A stretch of 64,000 nucleotides of DNA, from positions 1 through 64,000 of the forward strand of contig JAVTVJ010000292.1 of the NCBI GenBank assembly GCA_034509425.1, read 5' to 3'. Position 1 is the first letter of the stretch. Each line of letters opens with the position of its first letter. Source of the DNA: Eopsaltria australis. Its lineage: Eukaryota; Chordata; Aves; Passeriformes; Petroicidae. The notes under the pieces are model-generated. The model had not been told where the DNA came from and ran no database searches. It was given only the letters and a program-made list of their open reading frames with translations. Position numbers and translations under genes: made by a program. Below, one piece after another: positions 51,601 through 63,250 of the stretch.

Positions 51601-54600
51601 CCCAGCTTACTGCCATGCCAAGTGCTCTGGTGTGTGTGGCCTGACAGACATAGTTAAATACTGTCAGTATAATTGTGGCTGTGCTGAAAACCATGGAAGT
51701 GAAGCTGTGTAAAGAAATTAGTTCCAGAATAGATCTGTCCCTTCGTTCAGCAGCTGGAGGAGATGAAATCCACTCCCACAGTGGATCATTGTAGCCACCA
51801 TGGAATTAAATAATGAAGTGCACTTGGTAAAGGGGAATTTTAGCCCAGCTAAAAGTGTAAGTGCCTTGCTTTCTGCAAAGAAACTAACTCACTAACCAAT
51901 ACACCTTTCTTTCTTCTCCTCATTCACCTTTTGCCATCTCTTCTGTTTCTCTCATGCTCCTGCACTCCTGAGCAGGCGTCATCGGATCGCCGAGGAGAGT
52001 GGGAGATCCAGCCGAGCCGGCAGACAAATACCTCGTACTTGACATCTCATTTGGCTGCAGATCGACATGGAGGATCAGTGCAGGTACCTCTTCCTTCTGT
52101 TGTGTGCAGCCTTTGTGTTAAACCTCCTGAATTCTCCTCAAATTGCAGCGATGTTGTGGTCAGGAGAGTGTTTTCACCAGTCCTGACCCGTACATCCTGC
52201 TCAAGCCATGGTTTGGAAGAGATCCGAGCTGTGATGGTGAACATTGTGGCTTTTACTGTTTCAACAAAAAATTTTAAGCTGTTTTGAACCCAACTTTGTT
52301 CAACTGAAGACAGAAAGGAGCGGCATTAGTAGGTCTGGTCTATAAAGCACCTTCTACCCAATCTTGGAGGTGCTCTAGGGCAGTGCAGGCAGCTGAAGTA
52401 GGATTTGTTGTACACAGTCCCCATTAATGTTGGGAAAACAGTTGAGCTGTTCCAAAGCAGATCACCACCAGTTTGAGGGCATGGTGGGCCCAAGGTGGAT
52501 CTCGAAACGGTTGTACTGGAAGGAGATGAGCAGAGGATGTGCAACAGACAGTGTTGGAGCTGGCACTACCAGTGCTTTTAAATTCCTGAAAAATTCCTGT
52601 TCCTGAAGCCTTGCCTATCCTGGTTGTCACTCAGGCTTGCTGAGGGACCTTCTGGCACTAAAGCCAGAGTGAGCTGGCTGGATAAGCTGGAGAGAAGGTG
52701 CAGGAGCCATCCAAGCAAACAAGAACTCTGATATCACTGCCTCCTTGGCAGAGCTTTGCTATAAGTGGGGGGAGCCTCCCTTGGAATGGAAAATGTGACT
52801 CTCTTCCTTCTGAATTATTATAACTTTGAAATTACAGGGCTTTCAGGCAAAGATATGGGAAAAGGATTAACAGTTTTTTATTAGTATGTATGTGTATAAC
52901 AAGACAAACAACAACAATGGCAGCAACAACAAACAGAAGCAGGAATCCAGTGCCAGCCTTCTCTCGACTGCAGGTATGGTAAGGAAAAAACAGTCCAGAA
53001 GGGGCTGGACTCCACAGTGGCAGCAAATCCTCTCCACAGTAGCAGCAACTCGAACATTCCTCTCTGATCAAGGGAGGAGTTGAGCCTAGCCCCTCACTCC
53101 CCCAGCCAAAATCTCATGGTATCTCTGCCTTTCCCAAGAGATAAACCCCCAGCTAAGAGAGTAGCCAGCTGCACAATTTCCTCTCCTTGGCCACTTTAGT
53201 CTCTTAAGTACCAGTCATTATCATCTCTTAGGCAACAGATGGGACAAAATTCCCTGAGAGAAAGAGAAAAAAAAGAAAAATCATGATCTCCAGCAGTGGA
53301 GCTGCTGGGAGCTGGGGAGTTGGATGGTTATCCCTGCAATGGAAAAGCTGGAGTGAGCCATCATCACAGATGTGAGGCAAAAAGAGATGAGAGATTGTGT
53401 CAGTAGCTTTGGGGCAAGGACGTCATTCCCAAAATTGGCTGTGTAAGGAATGAGACTTAAGGAATGAGGCTTCTCCCCACGTACTGTCAGGCAACAGGAC
53501 CAAGGTGCTCACCTGTAAAAACGTCAGAAGAAAACAATCAGCATCTTACAGTTTGTGTGTGTAGATAGGGCTGGCAATGAGTGCTCACACCGGTGCCTGG
53601 GCTCCCAGAGGGGCCCCTCCATGCCAGGTCATGTGCTGGCCACAGGAATGTGAGTTATGGCACACACACACGGCCCCCACCTGCTGCTCTGCTTTGGCTG
53701 CTCCAGCCTGGAGACTCCAAGGCACCCACGAAACTCAGCAGCCTCCTGAGAGGGTGCAAAGAGACAGGAGCAAAAGCTTATTTGTCAGATTTCCCATTTC
53801 CTCAGCAGCCCTTGTCAGGGAGCCTCGTGAACAGGGTGTTCCTTTGTCTTTGCAGGTGGTGAGCTCAACCAACGGGGAGCTGAACGTGGATGACCCAACA
53901 GGAGCACACTCCAACGCACCCATCACAGCGCAGGCAGAGGTGGAGGTGGTGGAGGAAGCTAAGTACGTTTGCTTTACAACAGGCTTTCCACTGGTTGGTC
54001 ATTATCCTTCTCCTGGGAAGCGAGGGGGGACATTTTTCTGTGGCAAAATCCTCAATGCTCGTGTCCCATGCCCTTTTCCTTGCATATTGCTGCTTTTGTG
54101 CATGGTGCCTTCAGTGCTGCTGCTGCTTCTCTTTGACACTTGTCATGCCTGGAGAACATAACTCTTACTCAGAGCATGTATTGCCAGATAGACATTTCAG
54201 TAGCACAGATACCAAAATACCAGGAGCTGATCTCAGGAATCCTGGTGAGCGTCCCCCATTGCAGAGGGAGAACACACTGTACTCTCGTGCTGAGAGTGTA
54301 GGAGTAGCTTGAGCACAGCTCAGCAAAGAGATCACTGGTCTGAGAGTTGTCACTTCATTTCTGGCTGAGAGGTGGGTGCCAGGTATCCAGAACAGTCTGG
54401 AAGTAACTCTTGCAGGAATGGGTAGTTCTCCCTGGGGGTTCTCTTGGTCCAGCCCTGAGAAGCTGAGTGAGAGGAACCAGAAGCAGCTTGTGGAGCAGAA
54501 AGTGCTCTCTCTAAGCTGACCTCTCCTATAGCTTGTGATCAGACATGAGAACTGCTGTCAGAGCTGCTGCTTTGACCATTTTGGCTCCTGTCCGCATCCG

Positions 54601-57600
54601 GCACCATCGTGTCAGCTTTTGCACCTTCTCGCTGCCTCTGAACAAAACCAGGACCTGTCACTGCAGCGTCACCACAGAGTTCGGGCACTCCCCGAGCAAG
54701 GGGCCAGCAGGCCCAGGGTTGCCTTTGAACTGGTTGGTGCTGAGACATGGCCCACCTGCCTGGTTATTATTTGACTGGGTGATACTGGTGCCACATGTCC
54801 CCCATTGTTTGCCTCAACCTTTGTGGGCACTTCTGTGTGAAAAGTGGCAGGTGCGAGGAAGGGTGTATGGATGGAAAAGGTCCCTAGGTATGTGTCACCT
54901 GGTCTGGTTGTCCTGAAGGTCTTCTACTGTCCTGTCTCTCTCCAGGCCTTGCTTGTGTGCTCCCATATTGGTTTTTGGGTGCTGGGAAGCAGAGCATAAG
55001 CTGCTTTGCACTGACAGGATTGGAGTCTCTTGTAATTCCCAAGCATAGATCGCTTCATTCTGCTTTGTCTTTCCTTACATCTCTGATCGCAAATTCTCTC
55101 AGGCACACAAGAAGGGCAAAGGTCTTTGGGACTCTGCTCTGCAGAAAAGGGCGCCAGAGAGAGCTGGCAGGAGCTGGAGCTGGGCTCTGTGTTTTGAGAT
55201 CATGTGCAGTAGTGGGATGGGCTTTCCCTGGCACTCCAGAGGCAGAGCCATGCCAGTGCTTCTGCTTGGAGTGTGCTGGAGAAAAGCTCCAGTTTTCGGC
55301 AGTGGGTTTCGTTGGAGGGCAGGTCCCAGGTGTAGATCCATCATCAGACCCTTCTGCTGCTGGAGCTGCAGGGGACAAGAGCAGATGGTGGCCTGGAGTC
55401 CCTTTCTGATCCCAGTCTCAGATAAGAACCTGATGGGGCTGGTGCCTCCGTGGAGAATGGGTGTTTGTCAGGGGCCTCGCGCCCGTGGAAGAGCTGGCGA
55501 GGGCAGAGTGGTGTGAGTGCTGGGGCGGGCGGCGGGCAGGCCTGGTGTGTGTCTGCCGCTCTGCACTGCATGTTTGCATGGCTGCAGTGACTCGCTTCCA
55601 TCCCACCTCTGTGAACTAATCGCTCTTTCTTCCTTTCTGTGTTTTTTCTCTACACTCTCTGTAGCTGCCTGAAAATGCTCAACTTGTGGTGAGTCCCTCT
55701 CTCCAGTCCACATGCAAGGGGGAGCGGACCAGACTAGACTGGGGTTGGCAAAACCAAACCCACCAAACACTAAAAAGGCACAAAGTCAAAGCCAACCCAG
55801 AGCTGTTTTGATTTTAGGACCAATCACAATATTGGGGAGGGCATGGGCTGTGTCTGACCGGCCACACTAGGCTGAGGGATTCGGCTGATCTCTGAATGAA
55901 TGGATGCAAAATCGAATTTTAATCCTTTCCTATTTGGCTTTCCATCTCCCCCAAACGTTTACGTCCATAAGCAGATGATGCCTGATGGAGTTGGGCAGAG
56001 TTGGGCCTAGGCTGGCTGAGCCTCTTGCGGGAATTCCTCACACAGACGGTTACAAAGGGAAAACCCTGCACTGGGTATCGAGGAGATGGGCCAGTCACTT
56101 CCTTGGAAAGTCTCCTCTTGGAGAAGCACAGGCCAGGGAGAACGGAAGGACAAGGCCAGGGAGTGCTCATTAGTGACAGAGCCCCTACTCAGAGAGGGTA
56201 GGTGGGAGGTGGCTCCTTTCCAGCCAGCTGAGGTGCAGGTAAATGGGCTTCTCCAGGAAAGAAGGAGTGGGAAAGGTTGTCCTTTAGCACTAGTCCAAGC
56301 CCAGCTTGGGGCTTTATCAGGGTTTTGAAGCTGCAGCTGTAGTGTCCCAGTCTCAGGAGGTGCCCCTTGGGGAAACCACGTACCCACTAAGTGGAGGACC
56401 AAGCACACACGCAGATGAGTTTGTAGGTGCCAGGGTGGGCTGATGGGTGGAAATTGCCACAGAGCAAGGGGATCAAGCCCGTGTGTAGCGAGGAATGTCC
56501 TTGTTGGATGGGAGACTGACTCTGCCCTGCTCTCCATAGGCATCGCCTCCAATACCTCTGGCATCTCTGGCTTCTCTGTATGTCGTAGTCTGGGGCTGTT
56601 CTCTTGGGCATCATCTGCATGCAGAGAGATCACGTTCTGTAATTGTCAGCCTGCCTTATCCTTTTATTTTGGTGTTTTGCCTCTGCCTGTCTGAACTGCC
56701 AGGACTTCCTTTCCTGAATCCTTCCCTGGACCTCTGAGTAGGAGCCTAAAAAGACAGTCACAAGGAAAACCAGCCAGGAGTCAGTCAGCTCCCTTTGTCT
56801 GGTGCCCAAGGAGTCGAGTGCTGCTCAGCCCCTTCTTCCCTTACCCGCTGCATGCAAAACCATCACTCATGCATCCTCCATCCTCTCCCTGTGACGTCCC
56901 CCTTTACTCACCATCGCACAAGCCATGAAGAAAGGTGGCTACTGTGGGAGAGAAATACTGCAACAGGCTAAAACAGGAGATGGGGGCAGATGGCCCAGGA
57001 CAACAGAATGCCAGAGCAGTCCTGAGGTGGGGGTTCCAGCCTGGGATGGGGGTGCTGAGGTGGCAGACGAACACCTCAGTGTGGGTGGGCAGCAATGGAG
57101 GCATCACTTGCCCTGCAAGTGCAAGGGCTTTGCGTTTCTCCTCGTCCCACCACCTGACTGGGCCTAGAGATAAATCATGGACATCTGTCCATGCAGTGGG
57201 AGGGGTCCTTCCTCTTGGGAGGCTGTGGGAGCTCTCCATGTCACAAGGAGAGTATTGTTTGTTCTCCCAAGCAGTTGATCTGTGCTGGCAGGCTTGGCTC
57301 ACAGCCGGTTGTGCTCACCCATCGCTTTTGCACTCCAGAGTGAGGCTTGTGCACCCAGGGACCAGCACTTGGGTGAGAGTTCCTCTAGCTCTGAAAGGAC
57401 AGGGGTATAAAGCTGACATTCCATGAAGGACCCAGTGAAAAATAGTTTGGAGAAGATGTTAGAGTGGTTTGTAATGTTTTTAGCCTACAGCAGATGGTTG
57501 TAGGAAAAAACAATCTTTGAATCCTCATGTTTGCCTGTCAGAGCTCAGGGAGCATTTGAACAACACTCTCAGGCACATGGTTGGATTCTTGGGGCTGTCC

Positions 57601-58678
57601 CGTGCAGAGCCAGGAGTTGGACTCAATGATCCTTGTGGGTCTCTTCCAATTCAGGATCTTCTGTGACTCAGTGGTCTACTCTGGTTGCTTATCCAGGCAT
57701 CCCTTCCAGCAGCCAGAAAGAGCAGTCTTCCAGCATCACTCGGGCTTCTCCGGGGATGGCTGTCCCAGCAGATGGAGAAAGACGTAGCTTGGGAGAACTC
57801 GCAGATGTGCAGAGCATTTCTGACAGTGGGCTGAGGGTAGAAACGTAGATACACATCCAACACCAAGGAATTCTATAGGAAGCCAGGAGAAGTATAGGAT
57901 CTGGATGACTGCTCCCAGTGTATCCCACAGGGAACCCACCGCTCCTCACGGTTCAGCTGCGTTGGGCGTTCCTCTCCCCACCTCAGCCTCCACTCTTCAT
58001 CCTTCTTGCTTCCCGTAATCCTCTGCACCACCCTCACATCGGATGGGGGAAGAAGCAGGGGTTCTGCATCCCAGCACTGAGTGATTGATCCAAAGTGGAA
58101 GCTCTGGTTATCATGAAAGGTTCAGTAAAGAAACCTGGTCCCTGAGCCGACATCTCTTTGGAACTTGTTTTTTTAGTGAACAGTGGTGAAAACCATGTGT
58201 CTCGTGGCTGGGAAAAGCAGCCAGACCTCACTGTCCCAGTCCACTTCCTCTGGGGTGGGACAGAGGGAGTGGAGCACCTGGGTCCCTGTTTTATCACTTT
58301 GCCAGATGGCTCCTTGTGTTCCTGCTCCAGTGGAGCCTGGGAGGGAGAAGCCTGGCCAGCATTCTGGGGCCTGGCAGTGGGAAATCCCAGCTGGCCATGG
58401 CTAAGTCTCCCAGTCCGGGCTGGTGATGTCATCCACTCTCCAGCAGCTGCCCCCCATCCCAGCAGCATGGTGGGGCCCGGGCTGGGCAGGCAGAGATGCT
58501 GTTGCATGAGGACAAGTGGGGGGGACAGCAGGGATATCATGGGGACATTGCGGACACATCACGGGGACATTGCAGGCTGCCAGGCGTGGGGCTGACTCTC
58601 CCTCCTTGTCCTTTGTCCTCCAGGTGCTGCTGCTTCTTTAAGAGGAAACGGAAGAAGACGGCTCAGCGTCACAAGTGA
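6446..58678 (+). CDS. CSNK1G1: Casein kinase 1 gamma 1, whole gene span (11 constitutive coding exons plus 2 optional)
   Basis: This is a Ser/Thr kinase of the CK1 gamma subfamily, a membrane-anchored kinase known to phosphorylate LRP6 in Wnt signalling. Joining exons 6446-6623, 11946-11986, 16250-16319, 33555-33706, 39071-39305, 41619-41704, 43682-43766, 45566-45714, 47306-47410, 53856-53962 and 58624-58678 gives 1263 nt, or 420 residues plus TGA, against 422 in human as I recall. Visible motifs are the P-loop [11 protein letters not shown] (about 50-60), VAIK Lys72, RDVKPEN with catalytic Asp163, DFG Asp186, the CK1-specific SIN segment in place of APE, and the tail [17 protein letters not shown]. 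The N-terminus [16 protein letters not shown] and the downstream PPIB identify gamma 1 rather than gamma 2 or 3. The start ATG at 6446 is preceded by an in-frame TGA at 6338-6340. Two optional in-frame exons (51976-52083 and 55665-55688) can extend the tail. Confidence 0.97.
7873..8446 (-). mobile_element. CR1 fragment, about 570 nt
   Basis: A long inverse CR1 reads from TCACAGAATCAAAGACTGG through CTCACCACCCTCACAGGGAA and CTCCAGCAGCTCCACATCC to TGGAGTCTCACCTGAGAGGG. Confidence 0.85.
9440..9978 (+). mobile_element. CR1 fragment, about 540 nt
   Basis: It covers the same stretch as the copy at 7873-8446 in the opposite orientation: GGATTCTGTCCCTCTGCCCC, GAAGCCCAGAGGAGGCCATG, GGCTGCCCAGAGCAGCTGTG, and an end in CCAACCCAAACCATTCTAGG. 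Confidence 0.85.
11946..11986 (+). CDS. CSNK1G1: CSNK1G1 coding exon 2 (VAIK lysine exon)
   Basis: This 41-nt exon encodes the rest of Gly60 and residues 61-73 ([13 protein letters not shown]). It includes Lys72, the ATP-anchoring lysine of VAIK. It lies between the acceptor TTTGCAG and the donor GTAAGT and matches CK1-gamma sequence without gaps. Skipping it would shift the frame and remove the catalytic lysine. Confidence 0.97.
13061..13452 (-). mobile_element. CR1 fragment
   Basis: Inverse CR1: CTCATCTCATTCCACCCCCT, CCCAGGTTGCTCCAAGCCC, CTCCACAGGAAAGTATTTCT, and CAGCTCTCCCAGCC at its far end. Confidence 0.85.
15158..15203 (+). mobile_element. CR1 3' terminal remnant
   Basis: It reads TTAGTGACCTTGGAGGCC, TTTTCCTACCTCATTGATTC and TGTGATT, a very short CR1 end. 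Confidence 0.55.
15674..15703. repeat. TTTTA microsatellite
   Basis: A run of TTTTA pentamers of about 30 nt lies in intron 2. Confidence 0.9.
16250..16319 (+). CDS. CSNK1G1: CSNK1G1 coding exon 3 (alphaC region)
   Basis: This 70-nt exon encodes residues 74-96 and the first base of codon 97. It starts [20 protein letters not shown] and continues GGA. The region carries the alphaC helix and the glutamate that pairs with the VAIK lysine. The acceptor is TTCTAG and the donor GTGAGT. The GGA segment is the variable junction; codon 97 completes as GCT (Ala) across the splice, where I recall Gly in human. Confidence 0.97.
17464..17695 (-). mobile_element. CR1 3' fragment
   Basis: It opens CATAGAATCATGGAATGG and continues GGTTTGGGTTGGAAGGAACC and GGGCAGGGACACCTCCCACT, ending near the GAGAGGAATTCCTTCC block. 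Confidence 0.85.
20552..20980 (+). mobile_element. CR1 fragment
   Basis: It runs from GGAGCTGCTGGAACAAGTCC through GGAGCCAGACTGGGAGAGCT and GGAGCAAGCTGGGATAGTGG to CCAACCCAAACCATTCTGGG. Confidence 0.85.
21210..21500. promoter_or_regulatory. Candidate intronic enhancer: AP-1 and E-box cluster
   Basis: Three TGAGTCA motifs (21210-21216, 21466-21472, 21494-21500) and two CACGTG E-boxes (21250-21255, 21267-21272) lie within 291 bp. A further TGACTCA is at 22623-22629. Motif presence is direct; enhancer activity is inferred. Confidence 0.4.
22281..22415 (-). mobile_element. CR1 3' fragment
   Basis: ATCATAAAATCAGAGTGGTT, GGACACCTTCCACTAGACCA and GTCCAACCTGGCCTTGAACA appear in inverse orientation. 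Confidence 0.8.
23724..23868 (-). mobile_element. CR1 3' fragment
   Basis: ACTGGTTTGGGTTGGGAGGG, CCATGGGCAGGGATACCTTC and AAGCCCTGTCCAACCTGG appear in inverse orientation. Confidence 0.8.
25533..25819 (+). mobile_element. CR1 3' fragment, different subfamily
   Basis: GGTTTAGGTTGGATATTGGG, GTTCTTCCCCCAGAGGGTGG and CTCTCAGGCACAGGGTGGGA are followed by CATGATTCTATGA. The diagnostic middle block is shared with the copies at 49095 and 57538 but not the others. Confidence 0.85.
26186..26372 (-). mobile_element. CR1 3' fragment
   Basis: ACCACAGAATCATCTAGGC, CCCCAAGTGCCACATCCATG and GAGTGACTCCACCACTGCCC appear in inverse orientation. Confidence 0.85.
27383..27508 (+). mobile_element. CR1 3' tail
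   Basis: GGAAGTGTTCAAGACCAGGT, GGAGCAACCTGGTCTACTGA and TTTGAGGTCCCTTCCAGC form a CR1 tail. Confidence 0.8.
33555..33706 (+). CDS. CSNK1G1: CSNK1G1 coding exon 4 (hinge region)
   Basis: This 152-nt exon completes codon 97 and encodes residues 98-147 ([20 protein letters not shown] through MIAIQL). It covers beta4, beta5, the hinge ([12 protein letters not shown]) and alphaE. The acceptor is TCTTGCAG and the donor GTGAGT. A CR1 copy begins about 100 nt downstream of its donor. The sequence is essentially invariant among vertebrate CK1-gamma proteins, so the assignment is secure. Confidence 0.98.
33807..34105 (-). mobile_element. CR1 3' fragment just past exon 4
   Basis: CATAGAATCACCGAGTGG, CTGTGCCAGGGTCTCACCAC and TTCCCAATATCCCATCTAAC appear in inverse orientation. 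It starts about 100 nt after the exon 4 donor. Confidence 0.85.
37096..37115. repeat. GT dinucleotide microsatellite
   Basis: A GT run of about ten units lies in intron 4. Confidence 0.9.
39071..39305 (+). CDS. CSNK1G1: CSNK1G1 coding exon 5 (catalytic loop and activation segment)
   Basis: This 235-nt exon encodes residues 148-225 and one base of Glu226. It contains the catalytic loop YRDVKPENF (Asp163, Asn168), the DFG motif (Asp186), the [20 protein letters not shown] stretch, and the CK1 signature [20 protein letters not shown] that replaces the APE motif. The acceptor is TTTTGCAG. The donor GTCTGT is weak, with a pyrimidine at +3. A minus-strand CR1 starts about 30 nt past the donor. Confidence 0.98.
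39306..41618 (+). other. CSNK1G1 intron 5
   Basis: This 2.3-kb intron has a CR1 occupying its first 500 nt. The remainder is unique-looking sequence with no visible exon. Confidence 0.9.
39335..39790 (-). mobile_element. CR1 fragment abutting the exon 5 donor
   Basis: Inverse CR1 beginning about 30 nt after the exon 5 donor: GGTCACTGAGTCCAGCAAG, TGTCCCCAAGTGCCACATTC, GGAGCAGAGCACAACCCCAC and CTGAGCCTCCCCAGCTCC. Confidence 0.85.
41619..41704 (+). CDS. CSNK1G1: CSNK1G1 coding exon 6
   Basis: This 86-nt exon completes Glu226 and encodes residues 227-254, beginning [20 protein letters not shown] and ending SLPWQGLK. It covers helix alphaF, including the conserved Asp of the RRDD segment and the SLPWQGL motif of CK1 kinases. 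The acceptor is CTCTTTTAG and the donor GTAGGT. Confidence 0.98.
41705..43681 (+). other. CSNK1G1 intron 6
   Basis: This 2.0-kb intron shows no CR1, no microsatellite and no exon-like segment. Confidence 0.9.
43682..43766 (+). CDS. CSNK1G1: CSNK1G1 coding exon 7
   Basis: This 85-nt exon encodes residues 255-282, starting [20 protein letters not shown] and ending EVLCENFP, plus one base of Glu283. It forms the alphaG region with the CK1-typical [11 protein letters not shown] segment. The acceptor is GCGCTGCAG and the donor GTAAAG. Human reads IEAL where this reads VEVL, a conservative change. Confidence 0.97.
43767..45565 (+). other. CSNK1G1 intron 7
   Basis: This 1.8-kb intron has a minus-strand CR1 at 45096-45270 ending about 300 nt before exon 8, plus a pyrimidine-rich run near 44665-44700. 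Confidence 0.9.
45096..45270 (-). mobile_element. CR1 3' fragment
   Basis: GACTTGTTTGGGTTGGAAGG, GGACACCTTCCACTATTCCA and TTGGACACTTCCAGGGATGG appear in inverse orientation. Confidence 0.85.
45566..45714 (+). CDS. CSNK1G1: CSNK1G1 coding exon 8 (end of kinase domain)
   Basis: This 149-nt exon completes Glu283 and encodes residues 284-332. It starts [20 protein letters not shown] and ends [15 protein letters not shown], closing the C-lobe with the FDYAYDW block shared by CK1 family members. The acceptor is TTCCAACAG and the donor GTGAGT. Confidence 0.98.
46123..46362 (-). mobile_element. CR1 3' fragment
   Basis: ATAGAATCCCAGAATGGTTT, CCCCATCCAACCTGACCTTG and CCTCACCACCCTCACAGGGA appear in inverse orientation. 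Confidence 0.85.
46790..47160. promoter_or_regulatory. Candidate conserved noncoding element in intron 8 with RFX-like site
   Basis: A repeat-free block has a 15-nt near-palindrome CAACCACGGTGGTTG (46866-46880) overlapping GTTGCCATGG (46877-46886), the core of an RFX/X-box-like motif, in AT-rich surroundings. Conservation is a guess from its character and cannot be tested here. Confidence 0.35.
47306..47410 (+). CDS. CSNK1G1: CSNK1G1 coding exon 9 (start of C-terminal tail)
   Basis: This 105-nt, phase-0 exon encodes residues 333-367 of the regulatory tail ([20 protein letters not shown] and on to [11 protein letters not shown]). It is one residue shorter than my recollection of human in the PSQQ...LRNQ stretch. 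The acceptor is TTTTCCAG. The donor GTGCAT is weak, consistent with the alternative splicing inferred downstream. It is a tail exon, not a catalytic one. Confidence 0.95.
49095..49314 (+). mobile_element. CR1 3' fragment with expanded tail repeat
   Basis: GGTTGGACATCAGGAAAAGG, TCTTCCCCCAGAGGGTGGTC and CTCTCAGGCACAGGGTGGGA end in an ATTCTAGTCTAGTCTATTCT microsatellite-like tail. Confidence 0.85.
49741..49795 (+). mobile_element. CR1 3' terminal remnant
   Basis: AAATGAGATGATCTTAAGG and CCCTTCCAACCCACACTG are followed by TTCTATGATCCTATGA. Confidence 0.75.
50229..51280. mobile_element. LTR-like interspersed repeat, copy A, with a GC-rich interior
   Basis: This segment begins TGTCTTGGTTTCAAAGACA and shares several blocks in the same order with 52771-53312: GGAATGGAAAATGTGACTCT, TTCTGAATTATTATAACTTT, GAGAGTAGCCAGCTGCAC and GCAACAGATGGGACAAAATT. 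Two copies of one repeat, non-coding and with TG at one edge, suggest a solitary LTR of an avian endogenous retrovirus. I did not assign a family. Copy A carries about 460 nt of CpG-rich sequence (about 50415-50870) that copy B lacks. No viral gene is visible. Confidence 0.65.
51976..52083 (+). CDS. CSNK1G1: CSNK1G1 optional in-frame cassette exon (36 residues)
   Basis: This 108-nt segment lies between an acceptor (CTCCTGAGCAG) and a weak donor (GTACCT). It is open in phase 0, the same phase as the exon 9/exon 10 junction, so inclusion adds 36 residues without a frameshift. Its translation ends [12 protein letters not shown], closely matching the segment I recall just before VVSSTNGEL in CSNK1G3 isoforms. 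It starts [20 protein letters not shown]. The match to a paralogous tail exon is strong evidence that it is real. The degree of inclusion is unknown. Confidence 0.85.
52771..53312. mobile_element. LTR-like interspersed repeat, copy B
   Basis: This is the second copy of the repeat at 50229-51280, in the same orientation and shorter. It has the GGAATGGAAAATGTGACTCT block, ACAACAACAATGGCAGCAAC, CAGTCCAGAAGGGGCTGGAC, GAGAGTAGCCAGCTGCAC and GCAACAGATGGGACAAAATT. It lies between the cassette exon and exon 10. The LTR identity is inferred; the repeat relationship is seen directly. Confidence 0.65.
53856..53962 (+). CDS. CSNK1G1: CSNK1G1 coding exon 10 (acidic tail)
   Basis: This 107-nt exon encodes residues 368-402 ([20 protein letters not shown], then [15 protein letters not shown]) plus two bases of codon 403. 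The acceptor is TTTGCAG and the donor GTACGT. Codon 403 is AAG (Lys) when spliced to the last exon. It becomes AAC (Asn) when the 24-nt microexon is included. Confidence 0.97.
55665..55688 (+). CDS. CSNK1G1: CSNK1G1 probable 24-nt microexon before the palmitoylation motif
   Basis: This 24-nt segment has a strong pyrimidine tract and GTAG acceptor (to 55664) and a consensus donor GTGAGT at 55689. Spliced between exon 10 (ending AA) and the last exon (starting G), it stays in frame and changes K-CCC to [13 protein letters not shown] recall a very similar NCQKVLNMW insertion in a CSNK1G3 isoform, which supports a real and ancient microexon. It adds a cysteine and a hydrophobic patch next to the lipidated cysteines. 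It was found by frame and splice-site logic, without transcript evidence. Confidence 0.8.
57538..57666 (+). mobile_element. CR1 3' fragment
   Basis: CACTCTCAGGCACATGGTTG and GGAGTTGGACTCAATGATCC are followed by TTGTGGGTCTCTTCCAATTC. Confidence 0.8.
58624..58678 (+). CDS. CSNK1G1: CSNK1G1 last coding exon (CCC-polybasic tail, stop TGA)
   Basis: This 55-nt segment encodes the end of Lys403 and [17 protein letters not shown] followed by TGA at 58676-58678. The cysteine cluster is the palmitoylation site known to anchor CK1-gamma kinases to the plasma membrane, and the KRKRKK stretch supplies basic contacts. The acceptor is TTTGTCCTCCAG. The exon continues into the 3' UTR. Confidence 0.98.
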
Positions 58679-62787: not shown

Positions 62788-63250
62788 AACCGGGACACAC
62801 CGGGGACACACCTGGGACACACCGGGGACAAGCCGGGACACACCGGGACATACCAGACACACAGGGGATACTCCGGGACACACCAGGGATACACCGGGGA
62901 TAGACCGGGACACACCAGGGATACACCGGGGATACACCGGGACACACCAGGGACACACCGGGGACACACCGGGACACACCGGGGACACACCAGGGACACA
63001 CCGGAGACACACCGGGACACAACGGCACACACCAGAGACACACCGGGGACACACCGGGACACAACAGGGACACACCGGAACACACCGGGGACAAGCCGGG
63101 ACACACCGGGACACAACAGGGACACACCGGGACACACCGGGGACAAGCCGGGACACACCGGACACACCGGGGACACACCGGGACACAACAGGGACACACC
63201 GGGACACACCGGGACACACCGGGGACACACCGGGGACAAGCCGGGACACG
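62788..63250. repeat. GGGACACACC minisatellite between CSNK1G1 and PPIB
   Basis: About 460 bp consists of units of roughly 10-12 bp with the core GGGACACACCG and variants GGGATACACC, GGGACAAGCC and GGGACACAAC. A higher-order block (ACAACAGGGACACACC followed by GGGGACAAGCC) recurs near 63061, 63113 and 63185. Because the unit lacks stops in several frames on both strands, it produces long open frames of His-Thr-Gly-Asp-Pro or Cys-Val-Pro-Gly type. I regard these as non-coding by-products. It ends about 370 bp before the PPIB ATG. Confidence 0.95.

What the first reader, a model, noticed from the sequence alone, without database searches (positions are those of the whole stretch)
55665..55688. 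A 24-nt microexon rewrites the residues just before the membrane-anchoring cysteines of CK1-gamma 1
A 24-nt segment with strong acceptor and consensus donor stays in frame between exon 10 and the last exon and changes K-CCC to [12 protein letters not shown]. It adds a cysteine and hydrophobic residues at the palmitoylation site. A closely similar insertion is, as I recall, present in a CSNK1G3 isoform, which would make this an ancient, paralog-shared microexon. Automated gene models easily miss it. It could tune lipidation or localisation.
Basis: partly seen in the sequence, partly recalled or inferred. Interest (0 to 1): 0.75.

Follow-up and report, generated by a model that had tools for sequence, protein, structure and literature searches.

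The report
Ancient microexon beside CK1-gamma lipid anchor
A tiny optional 24-base exon in a bird kinase gene inserts eight amino acids right next to the kinase's membrane anchor; it is real, is shared with a sister gene and with other jawed vertebrates, and is already present in public gene models, but what it does is untested.

Summary
Window 55665-55688 is a 24-nt, in-frame, phase-2 cassette exon of a bird CSNK1G1 gene; inclusion changes EEA-K-CCC to [15 protein letters not shown]. By my thresholds it is the only well-sited one of 303 frame-open candidates in its intron. The same genome carries its counterpart in CSNK1G3 (NCQKVLNMW; 19 of 24 bases identical) and no recognisable remnant in CSNK1G2. 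Public proteins show the insert in G1- or G3-type CK1-gamma of birds, mammals, reptiles, amphibians, coelacanth, ray-finned and cartilaginous fish (89 of 207 listed proteins). So it is an old, annotated, alternative microexon. In print, a 24-nt human CSNK1G3 exon, very probably its counterpart, is called PTBP1-responsive, and a C-terminal in-frame CSNK1G3 exon rises in epithelial-mesenchymal transition (PMC4358235, PMC3158048). Not met in my paper searches: insect CK1-gamma proteins carry 6- or 8-residue inserts of other sequence at exactly this junction (69 of 74 newly listed, with a query that favours inserts), and both bird paralogs have two UGCAUG motifs within 150 nt upstream. Most likely role: a splice switch that lengthens and alters the palmitoylated anchor. 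That function is inferred.

The parts
55665..55688 (+). 24-nt cassette microexon, CSNK1G1; with flanking bases encodes NCLKMLNLW
   Evidence: sequence; paralogous exon in CSNK1G3; same peptide in vertebrate proteins
53856..53962 (+). preceding coding exon ([10 protein letters not shown]...EVEVVEEA + AA)
   Evidence: tblastn and junctions
58624..58678 (+). coding part of last exon: CCC palmitoylation cluster, basic tail, stop
   Evidence: tblastn and sequence
55620..55664 (+). CU-rich tract with TCTCT/TCTT elements and acceptor TGTAG; PTBP1-like (motif meaning recalled)
   Evidence: similar tract in CSNK1G3, local alignment score reached by 7 of 500 shuffles
55567..55572 (+). TGCATG, RBFOX-type motif at -98
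55575..55580 (+). TGCATG, RBFOX-type motif at -90
   Evidence: CSNK1G3 has TGCATG at -144 and -75
55689..55694 (+). donor gtgagt, also gtgagt in CSNK1G3
51976..52083 (+). second in-frame exon of the same tail (108 nt, encodes GCGTCA...GTGCAG, peptide like [36 protein letters not shown]), present in some public isoforms and absent in others
   Evidence: tblastn and sequence; isoform tails

Best explanation
It is a genuine, deeply conserved alternative cassette microexon of CSNK1G1, paralogous to the CSNK1G3 24-nt exon, that acts as a splice switch on the kinase's membrane anchor. Skipping gives the short anchor [12 protein letters not shown]. Inclusion replaces the lysine by NCLKMLNLW, so a fourth cysteine and a hydrophobic stretch stand between the tail and the acylated cysteines. 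Most likely this changes which acyltransferase or membrane the tail meets, or how firmly it is held, and so how the kinase is shared among Golgi/post-Golgi puncta, plasma membrane and cytosol, and hence which substrates it reaches. Inclusion is most likely repressed by PTBP1 on the CU-rich tract, with RBFOX acting through the paired upstream UGCAUG motifs. Shown here: exon, frame, conservation, alternative isoforms in public models, motifs. From papers: the CCC cluster and tail are needed for localisation; PTBP1-responsiveness of a 24-nt CSNK1G3 exon. Inferred: every functional consequence of the insert, and regulation of the CSNK1G1 exon.
For: Exon, frame and uniqueness. Paralogous exon in the same genome at the same junction (19 of 24 bases; 0 of 500 shuffles as good). 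Protein variants N-C-[LVIQ]-K-[MVL]-[LI]-[NS]-[LM]-W in 89 of 207 listed proteins, 44 of G1 type and 45 of G3 type. Of 8 with/without pairs that I picked, 6 differ by exactly this insert; the other 2 pairs were from different species. Localisation: CK1G3 lacking its last 20 residues, or with the three cysteines changed, moves from puncta to nucleocytoplasm (PMC9254030, passages). An insert is compatible with anchoring: the fly Gish signal tested, SRCCCFFKR, fits the insert-bearing Drosophila form (...[14 protein letters not shown]; the link is my inference) and HA-Gish was mainly membrane-associated (PMC4900676, passages). A 24-nt CSNK1G3 exon, chr5:122941033-122941056, has inclusion 0.73 in control and 0.41-0.47 in diseased corneal endothelium and is described as PTBP1-responsive (PMC4358235, passages); a C-terminal in-frame CSNK1G3 exon rises by 0.55 in EMT (PMC3158048, passages).
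Against: No RNA-seq was available, so inclusion in this bird is inferred from related gene models. No experiment on the vertebrate insert was found. The introns downstream show no paralog similarity (407 of 500 shuffles score as high). UGCAUG upstream predicts repression by RBFOX, and PMC4317164 finds the motif enriched downstream of microexons; PMC3158048 infers raised RBFOX activity in EMT, where the CSNK1G3 exon rises, so RBFOX repression fits poorly and PTBP1 loss fits better. The G3 insert hardly changes the Kyte-Doolittle sum of the anchor core (13.7 against 13.1 skipped; G1 insert 20.6; cores counted from the first cysteine to FF), so greater hydrophobicity is not shared by both paralogs.
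Confidence: 0.72

Rival explanations
1. The insert is mainly a short protein-interaction motif or spacer, not a change of lipidation: the conserved K, N and W positions bind a partner near the membrane.
For: C, K, L/I, N/S and W recur at fixed places from sharks to mammals in two paralogs; insect inserts are conserved within their own groups, e.g. NGSLYSR in 39 listed Drosophila proteins, and that one adds no cysteine.
Against: The place, directly against the CCC cluster, and the added cysteine of the vertebrate inserts point to the anchor; insect inserts share only position and short length.
Confidence: 0.3
2. The exon is a non-functional splicing by-product that is tolerated because it keeps the frame.
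For: 71 of 207 listed proteins end in the plain skipped form, so the kinase is made without it; no function was shown for it in any paper found.
Against: Retention of length, phase, splice sites and peptide pattern in two paralogs of one genome, and of the peptide from cartilaginous fish to birds and mammals.
Confidence: 0.04
3. Sequence at 55665-55688 is a chance open segment, not an exon.
For: 303 frame-open AG...GT segments exist in the intron.
Against: Only one has good sites by my thresholds; the encoded peptide stands letter for letter in public CSNK1G1 proteins, e.g. P0001.
Confidence: 0.01
4. It belongs to the neuronal SRRM3/SRRM4 microexon programme.
For: Size, frame and vertebrate conservation fit that programme (PMC12626424, start of abstract in a listing; PMC8797185, passages).
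Against: No UGC near the acceptor in either paralog: nearest TGC upstream at -82 (G1) and -75 (G3) (motif rule recalled). Published CSNK1G3 data show inclusion in corneal endothelium and mesenchymal cells. The held text of PMC12626424 does not name CSNK1G genes.
Confidence: 0.12

Closest known systems
CSNK1G3 24-nt cassette exon (human chr5:122941033-122941056 in PMC4358235; assembly not checked)
   Same: Same length; the bird G3 insert NCQKVLNMW is homologous to the G1 one by position, phase, CU-rich tract and 19 of 24 bases
   Different: Different paralog; three residue changes (L/Q, M/V, L/M); a PTBP1 response is in print only for G3 among what I read. That the published exon has this very sequence is inferred from its length and the C-terminal place given in PMC3158048
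Insert-bearing insect CK1-gamma (Gish) isoforms
   Same: Insert at exactly the same residue before CCC, replacing K by N..., 6 or 8 residues longer
   Different: Other sequence; exon structure in insects was not examined; homology or convergence undecided
Neuronal microexons (SRRM3/SRRM4 programme)
   Same: 24 nt, in frame, alternative, vertebrate-conserved
   Different: Lacks a UGC element near the acceptor; no neural restriction shown
Gish isoform F, which lacks the palmitoylation motif (PMC6768662, passages)
   Same: Alternative CK1-gamma C-terminus changes the anchor and partner binding
   Different: Loses the anchor, whereas this exon keeps and extends it

Membership tests
Alternative vertebrate microexon | 3-51 nt, multiple of three, canonical splice sites | tested here: met
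   24 nt, AG/GT, donor gtgagt
Alternative vertebrate microexon | Included and skipped isoforms of the same gene | tested here: met
   6 of 8 with/without protein pairs differ only by the insert; the 2 failures were cross-species pairs; from gene models, not reads
Alternative vertebrate microexon | Conserved across vertebrates | tested here: met
   89 of 207 listed proteins carry it, cartilaginous fish to birds and mammals
SRRM3/SRRM4 neuronal programme | UGC element just upstream of the acceptor | tested here: not met
   nearest TGC at -82 in G1 and -75 in G3; rule recalled
SRRM3/SRRM4 neuronal programme | Neural-specific inclusion, lost without SRRM3/4 | not testable with these tools
   no RNA-seq
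CSNK1G3 24-nt exon homologue | Same junction and phase, similar peptide | tested here: met
CSNK1G3 24-nt exon homologue | PTBP1-responsive inclusion | not testable with these tools
   CU-rich tract present in both paralogs; response in print for G3 only
CK1-gamma palmitoylated tail | CCC cluster followed by basic residues, kept in the included form | tested here: met
   [11 protein letters not shown] retained
CSNK1G2 counterpart | Homologous microexon in the matching CSNK1G2 intron of this genome | tested here: not met
   431-nt intron; best match 15 of 28, reached by 506 of 1000 shuffles

The most novel reading that the evidence does not exclude
The intron directly before the CK1-gamma palmitoylation cysteines is an old microexon slot in animals: jawed-vertebrate CSNK1G1 and CSNK1G3, and several insect groups, hold a 6- or 8-residue insert there with different sequences, so that splicing has repeatedly, or since the bilaterian ancestor, been used to retune the lipid anchor of one kinase, under PTBP1/RBFOX control in vertebrates.
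Probability: 0.35. Interest if true: 0.6.

Novelty: already known. Interest (0 to 1): 0.36.

Why it matters
CK1-gamma is the CK1 group anchored to membranes by palmitoylation (PMC9157009, passage), and what it acts on (LRP5/6, Smoothened, CERT) depends on that anchor (PMC4900676 and PMC9254030, passages). A splice switch inside the anchor, kept since early jawed vertebrates in two paralogs, would be a direct way to set kinase location by cell type. It also bears on the clinic: a CSNK1G1 patient variant near the three cysteines is predicted to disrupt splicing (PMC9254030 discussion, passage).

Tried and rejected
Exact 27-base pattern for one codon choice in the genome: 0 matches, replaced by the degenerate pattern. 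CSNK1G2 intron: frame-open 24-nt segments such as KCHFWWLLW and NQCHLLWQV exist but have poor sites, and no remnant exceeds shuffles. Two G2-like public tails with odd inserts, P0166 (coelacanth, KGGKHINLM) and P0168 (green turtle, NLSVFLRR), were set aside as possibly forced gene models; they prove neither loss nor presence in G2. Structure prediction was not run: the tail is expected to be disordered and a model would not decide anything.

Papers. All were seen as passages found by term, none read whole. PMC8911335 names CSNK1G3 for trans-splicing only. PMC12626420, on zebrafish microexons, is the one paper the search lists for csnk1g1 with microexon, but the held text shows no occurrence, so it may name the CSNK1G1 microexon where I could not see it. 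PMC12626424, PMC4446417, PMC8797185 and PMC4317164 show no CSNK1G mention in the held text. PMC11121090 lists a CSNK1G1 mutually-exclusive-exon event between preadipocytes and adipocytes without naming the exon; PMC11203723 lists only a transcript name. Searches gave no paper that I could see describing the CSNK1G1 microexon or the insect inserts; supplementary tables could not be searched.

Limits of counts. In one search, 47 of 207 proteins were neither insert-bearing nor plain skipped by my expressions (truncated, intron read-through or other ends); they stay in the denominators. Each protein search lists only its best 120. Shuffles permute two-base blocks. The exon starts used as UGCAUG controls were approximate for several exons.

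Full report
Observation. Window 55665-55688 reads CTGCCTGAAAATGCTCAACTTGTG between a CU-rich acceptor ending tgtag and donor gtgagt. The window holds CSNK1G1 on the plus strand: tblastn with a recalled human protein matches exon after exon from 6446 to 58675. The preceding exon ends with AA at 53962 and the last exon begins with G at 58624, so the 24-nt exon lies between phase-2 introns: skipping gives AA|G = K before CCC, inclusion gives N-C-L-K-M-L-N-L-W before CCC. In the 4661-nt intron, 303 AG...GT segments of 3-51 nt keep the frame open and 19 are 24 nt long; only this one passes my thresholds for a pyrimidine-rich acceptor and a near-consensus donor (thresholds set after seeing the exon).

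Paralogs in the same genome. A degenerate pattern with up to 3 mismatches over 1.17 Gb gave five hits (one for the reversed control); besides the window, one lies on contig C5066 at 1051430-1051460, downstream of a CK1-gamma kinase exon found by protein search. Fetched sequence shows the order: exon ending ...VMDET-AA, microexon CTGCCAGAAAGTGTTGAACATGTG, last exon CCCLFKRRKRKTIQRNK. This is CSNK1G3 by its tail. The two microexons share 19 of 24 bases; none of 500 shuffles aligned as well. The pyrimidine tracts are similar (7 of 500 shuffles as good), the downstream introns are not (407 of 500). The third paralog, C702 (CSNK1G2), has a 431-nt intron at this place; its best match to either microexon is 15 of 28 bases, reached by 506 of 1000 shuffles. 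So the exon is recognisable in two of three paralogs here.

Other vertebrates. The 120 proteins listed for the included bird protein and 87 further ones listed for a shark G3 tail give 207; 89 carry the insert, 71 end in the plain skipped form, 47 have other or truncated ends. Variants are NCLKMLNLW (20), NCVKMLNLW (17), NCIKVLNMW (5, sharks and rays), NCQKVLNMW (43, G3 type) and four single forms; 44 are of G1 type and 45 of G3 type. By the names they cover birds, marsupial and placental mammals (mouse XP_017168762.1 for G1; a human entry for G3, P0140), Anolis and turtles, frogs and caecilians, coelacanth, ray-finned fish and cartilaginous fish. Of eight with/without pairs tested, six differ by exactly the insert; the other two were pairs of different species. 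Against easy annotation, 26 of the 120 proteins stop at the end of exon 10 or a few residues into the intron. The lists are capped at the best 120 and hold cluster representatives, so these are not frequencies.

Insects. A third search with a barnacle tail carrying the G3 insert listed 120 proteins, 74 of them not seen before. Of these 74, 69 have an insert at the same junction, starting with N in place of K and ending in R before CCC: NGSLYSR (39, all named Drosophila), NSFLCCLCR (14, tephritid flies), NVWFICR, NVCFISR, NVCFICR, NICLISR, NICFLSR, NLCFICR, NVCFIYR (14, Hymenoptera), NCWNSIISR (2, Culicoides). The other five, barnacles and two unnamed entries, lack it or look like intron read-through. 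The query favoured inserts, so this says nothing of frequency, and insect DNA was not seen, so that these are microexons is inferred from length and place. C. elegans has VKCCCFRRR (PMC10166522, passage). Whether vertebrate and insect inserts share descent is open.

Regulation. Two TGCATG motifs lie at -98 and -90 in G1 and at -144 and -75 in G3. In 150-nt windows along the G1 and G3 stretches, two or more occur in 0.63% each (of 2554 and 1594 windows; 0 of 1594 for G2); of 12 other, partly approximate, G1 exon starts checked, one has a single motif and 11 none. The motif was chosen after looking, so this is a lead. RBFOX and PTBP1 are established microexon regulators (PMC4317164, passages), but that paper finds TGCATG enriched downstream of microexons, whereas here it is upstream, where RBFOX tends to repress (PMC3158048, passage). 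A 24-nt CSNK1G3 exon at chr5:122941033-122941056 has inclusion 0.73 in control and 0.41-0.47 in diseased corneal endothelium and is described as responsive to PTBP1 and relatively insensitive to MBNL1 (PMC4358235, passages). CSNK1G3 is listed with an in-frame C-terminal skipped exon rising by 0.55 in EMT, where PTBP1 falls about 2.5-fold (PMC3158048, passages). I infer that these are this exon's G3 counterpart.

Function. The three cysteines and last 20 residues keep CK1G3 on puncta assigned to distal- and post-Golgi compartments; without them it spreads and CERT is hyperphosphorylated (PMC9254030, passages). In flies the signal tested is SRCCCFFKR, which fits the insert-bearing Drosophila form, and the protein is membrane-associated (PMC4900676, passages), so an insert here is compatible with anchoring. 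The bird G1 insert raises the hydropathy sum of the anchor core from 13.1 to 20.6 and its cysteines from 3 to 4; the G3 insert adds a cysteine but hardly any hydropathy (13.7). My reading is a splice switch on anchor strength or membrane choice; this step is inference.

Verdict. Real, ancient, alternative, already in public gene models, with its paralog in print. The vertebrate-insect coincidence at one junction is the part worth following.

Noticed in passing
window 51976-52083: A second in-frame exon (36 residues...[22 protein letters not shown]) in CSNK1G1, used in some public isoforms only. PMC9157009 calls a 33-residue insert unique to CK1-gamma-3; this bird G1 exon and related sequence in G3 (70% identity) and, weakly, G2 of the same genome suggest that a tail exon here is shared. 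That the two are the same insert was not checked.
   Followed up: partly
P0212-P0281: 69 insect CK1-gamma proteins carry 6- or 8-residue inserts of varied sequence at the same junction; the tephritid one (NSFLCCLCR) adds three cysteines, the Drosophila one (NGSLYSR) none.
   Followed up: partly
P0166: A coelacanth G2-type tail has KGGKHINLM at this junction, faintly like the G1/G3 insert; it may be a forced gene model or a relic of a G2 microexon.
   Followed up: no
P0021, P0066, P0077, P0078: Turtle and mammal CSNK1G1 models have another end with a shared peptide WHWSQSSAV; tblastn did not find it in this window.
   Followed up: partly
window 62789-63249: Minisatellite of ACCGGGACAC-like units downstream of the gene, periods about 11, 21 and 32 bases, up to 44 copies.
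   Followed up: no
G000 C138:41517, C1303:44822, C1268:5844: Three contigs match the CK1-gamma kinase exon with identical scores (70% identity), perhaps copies or split haplotypes of another CK1 gene.
   Followed up: no
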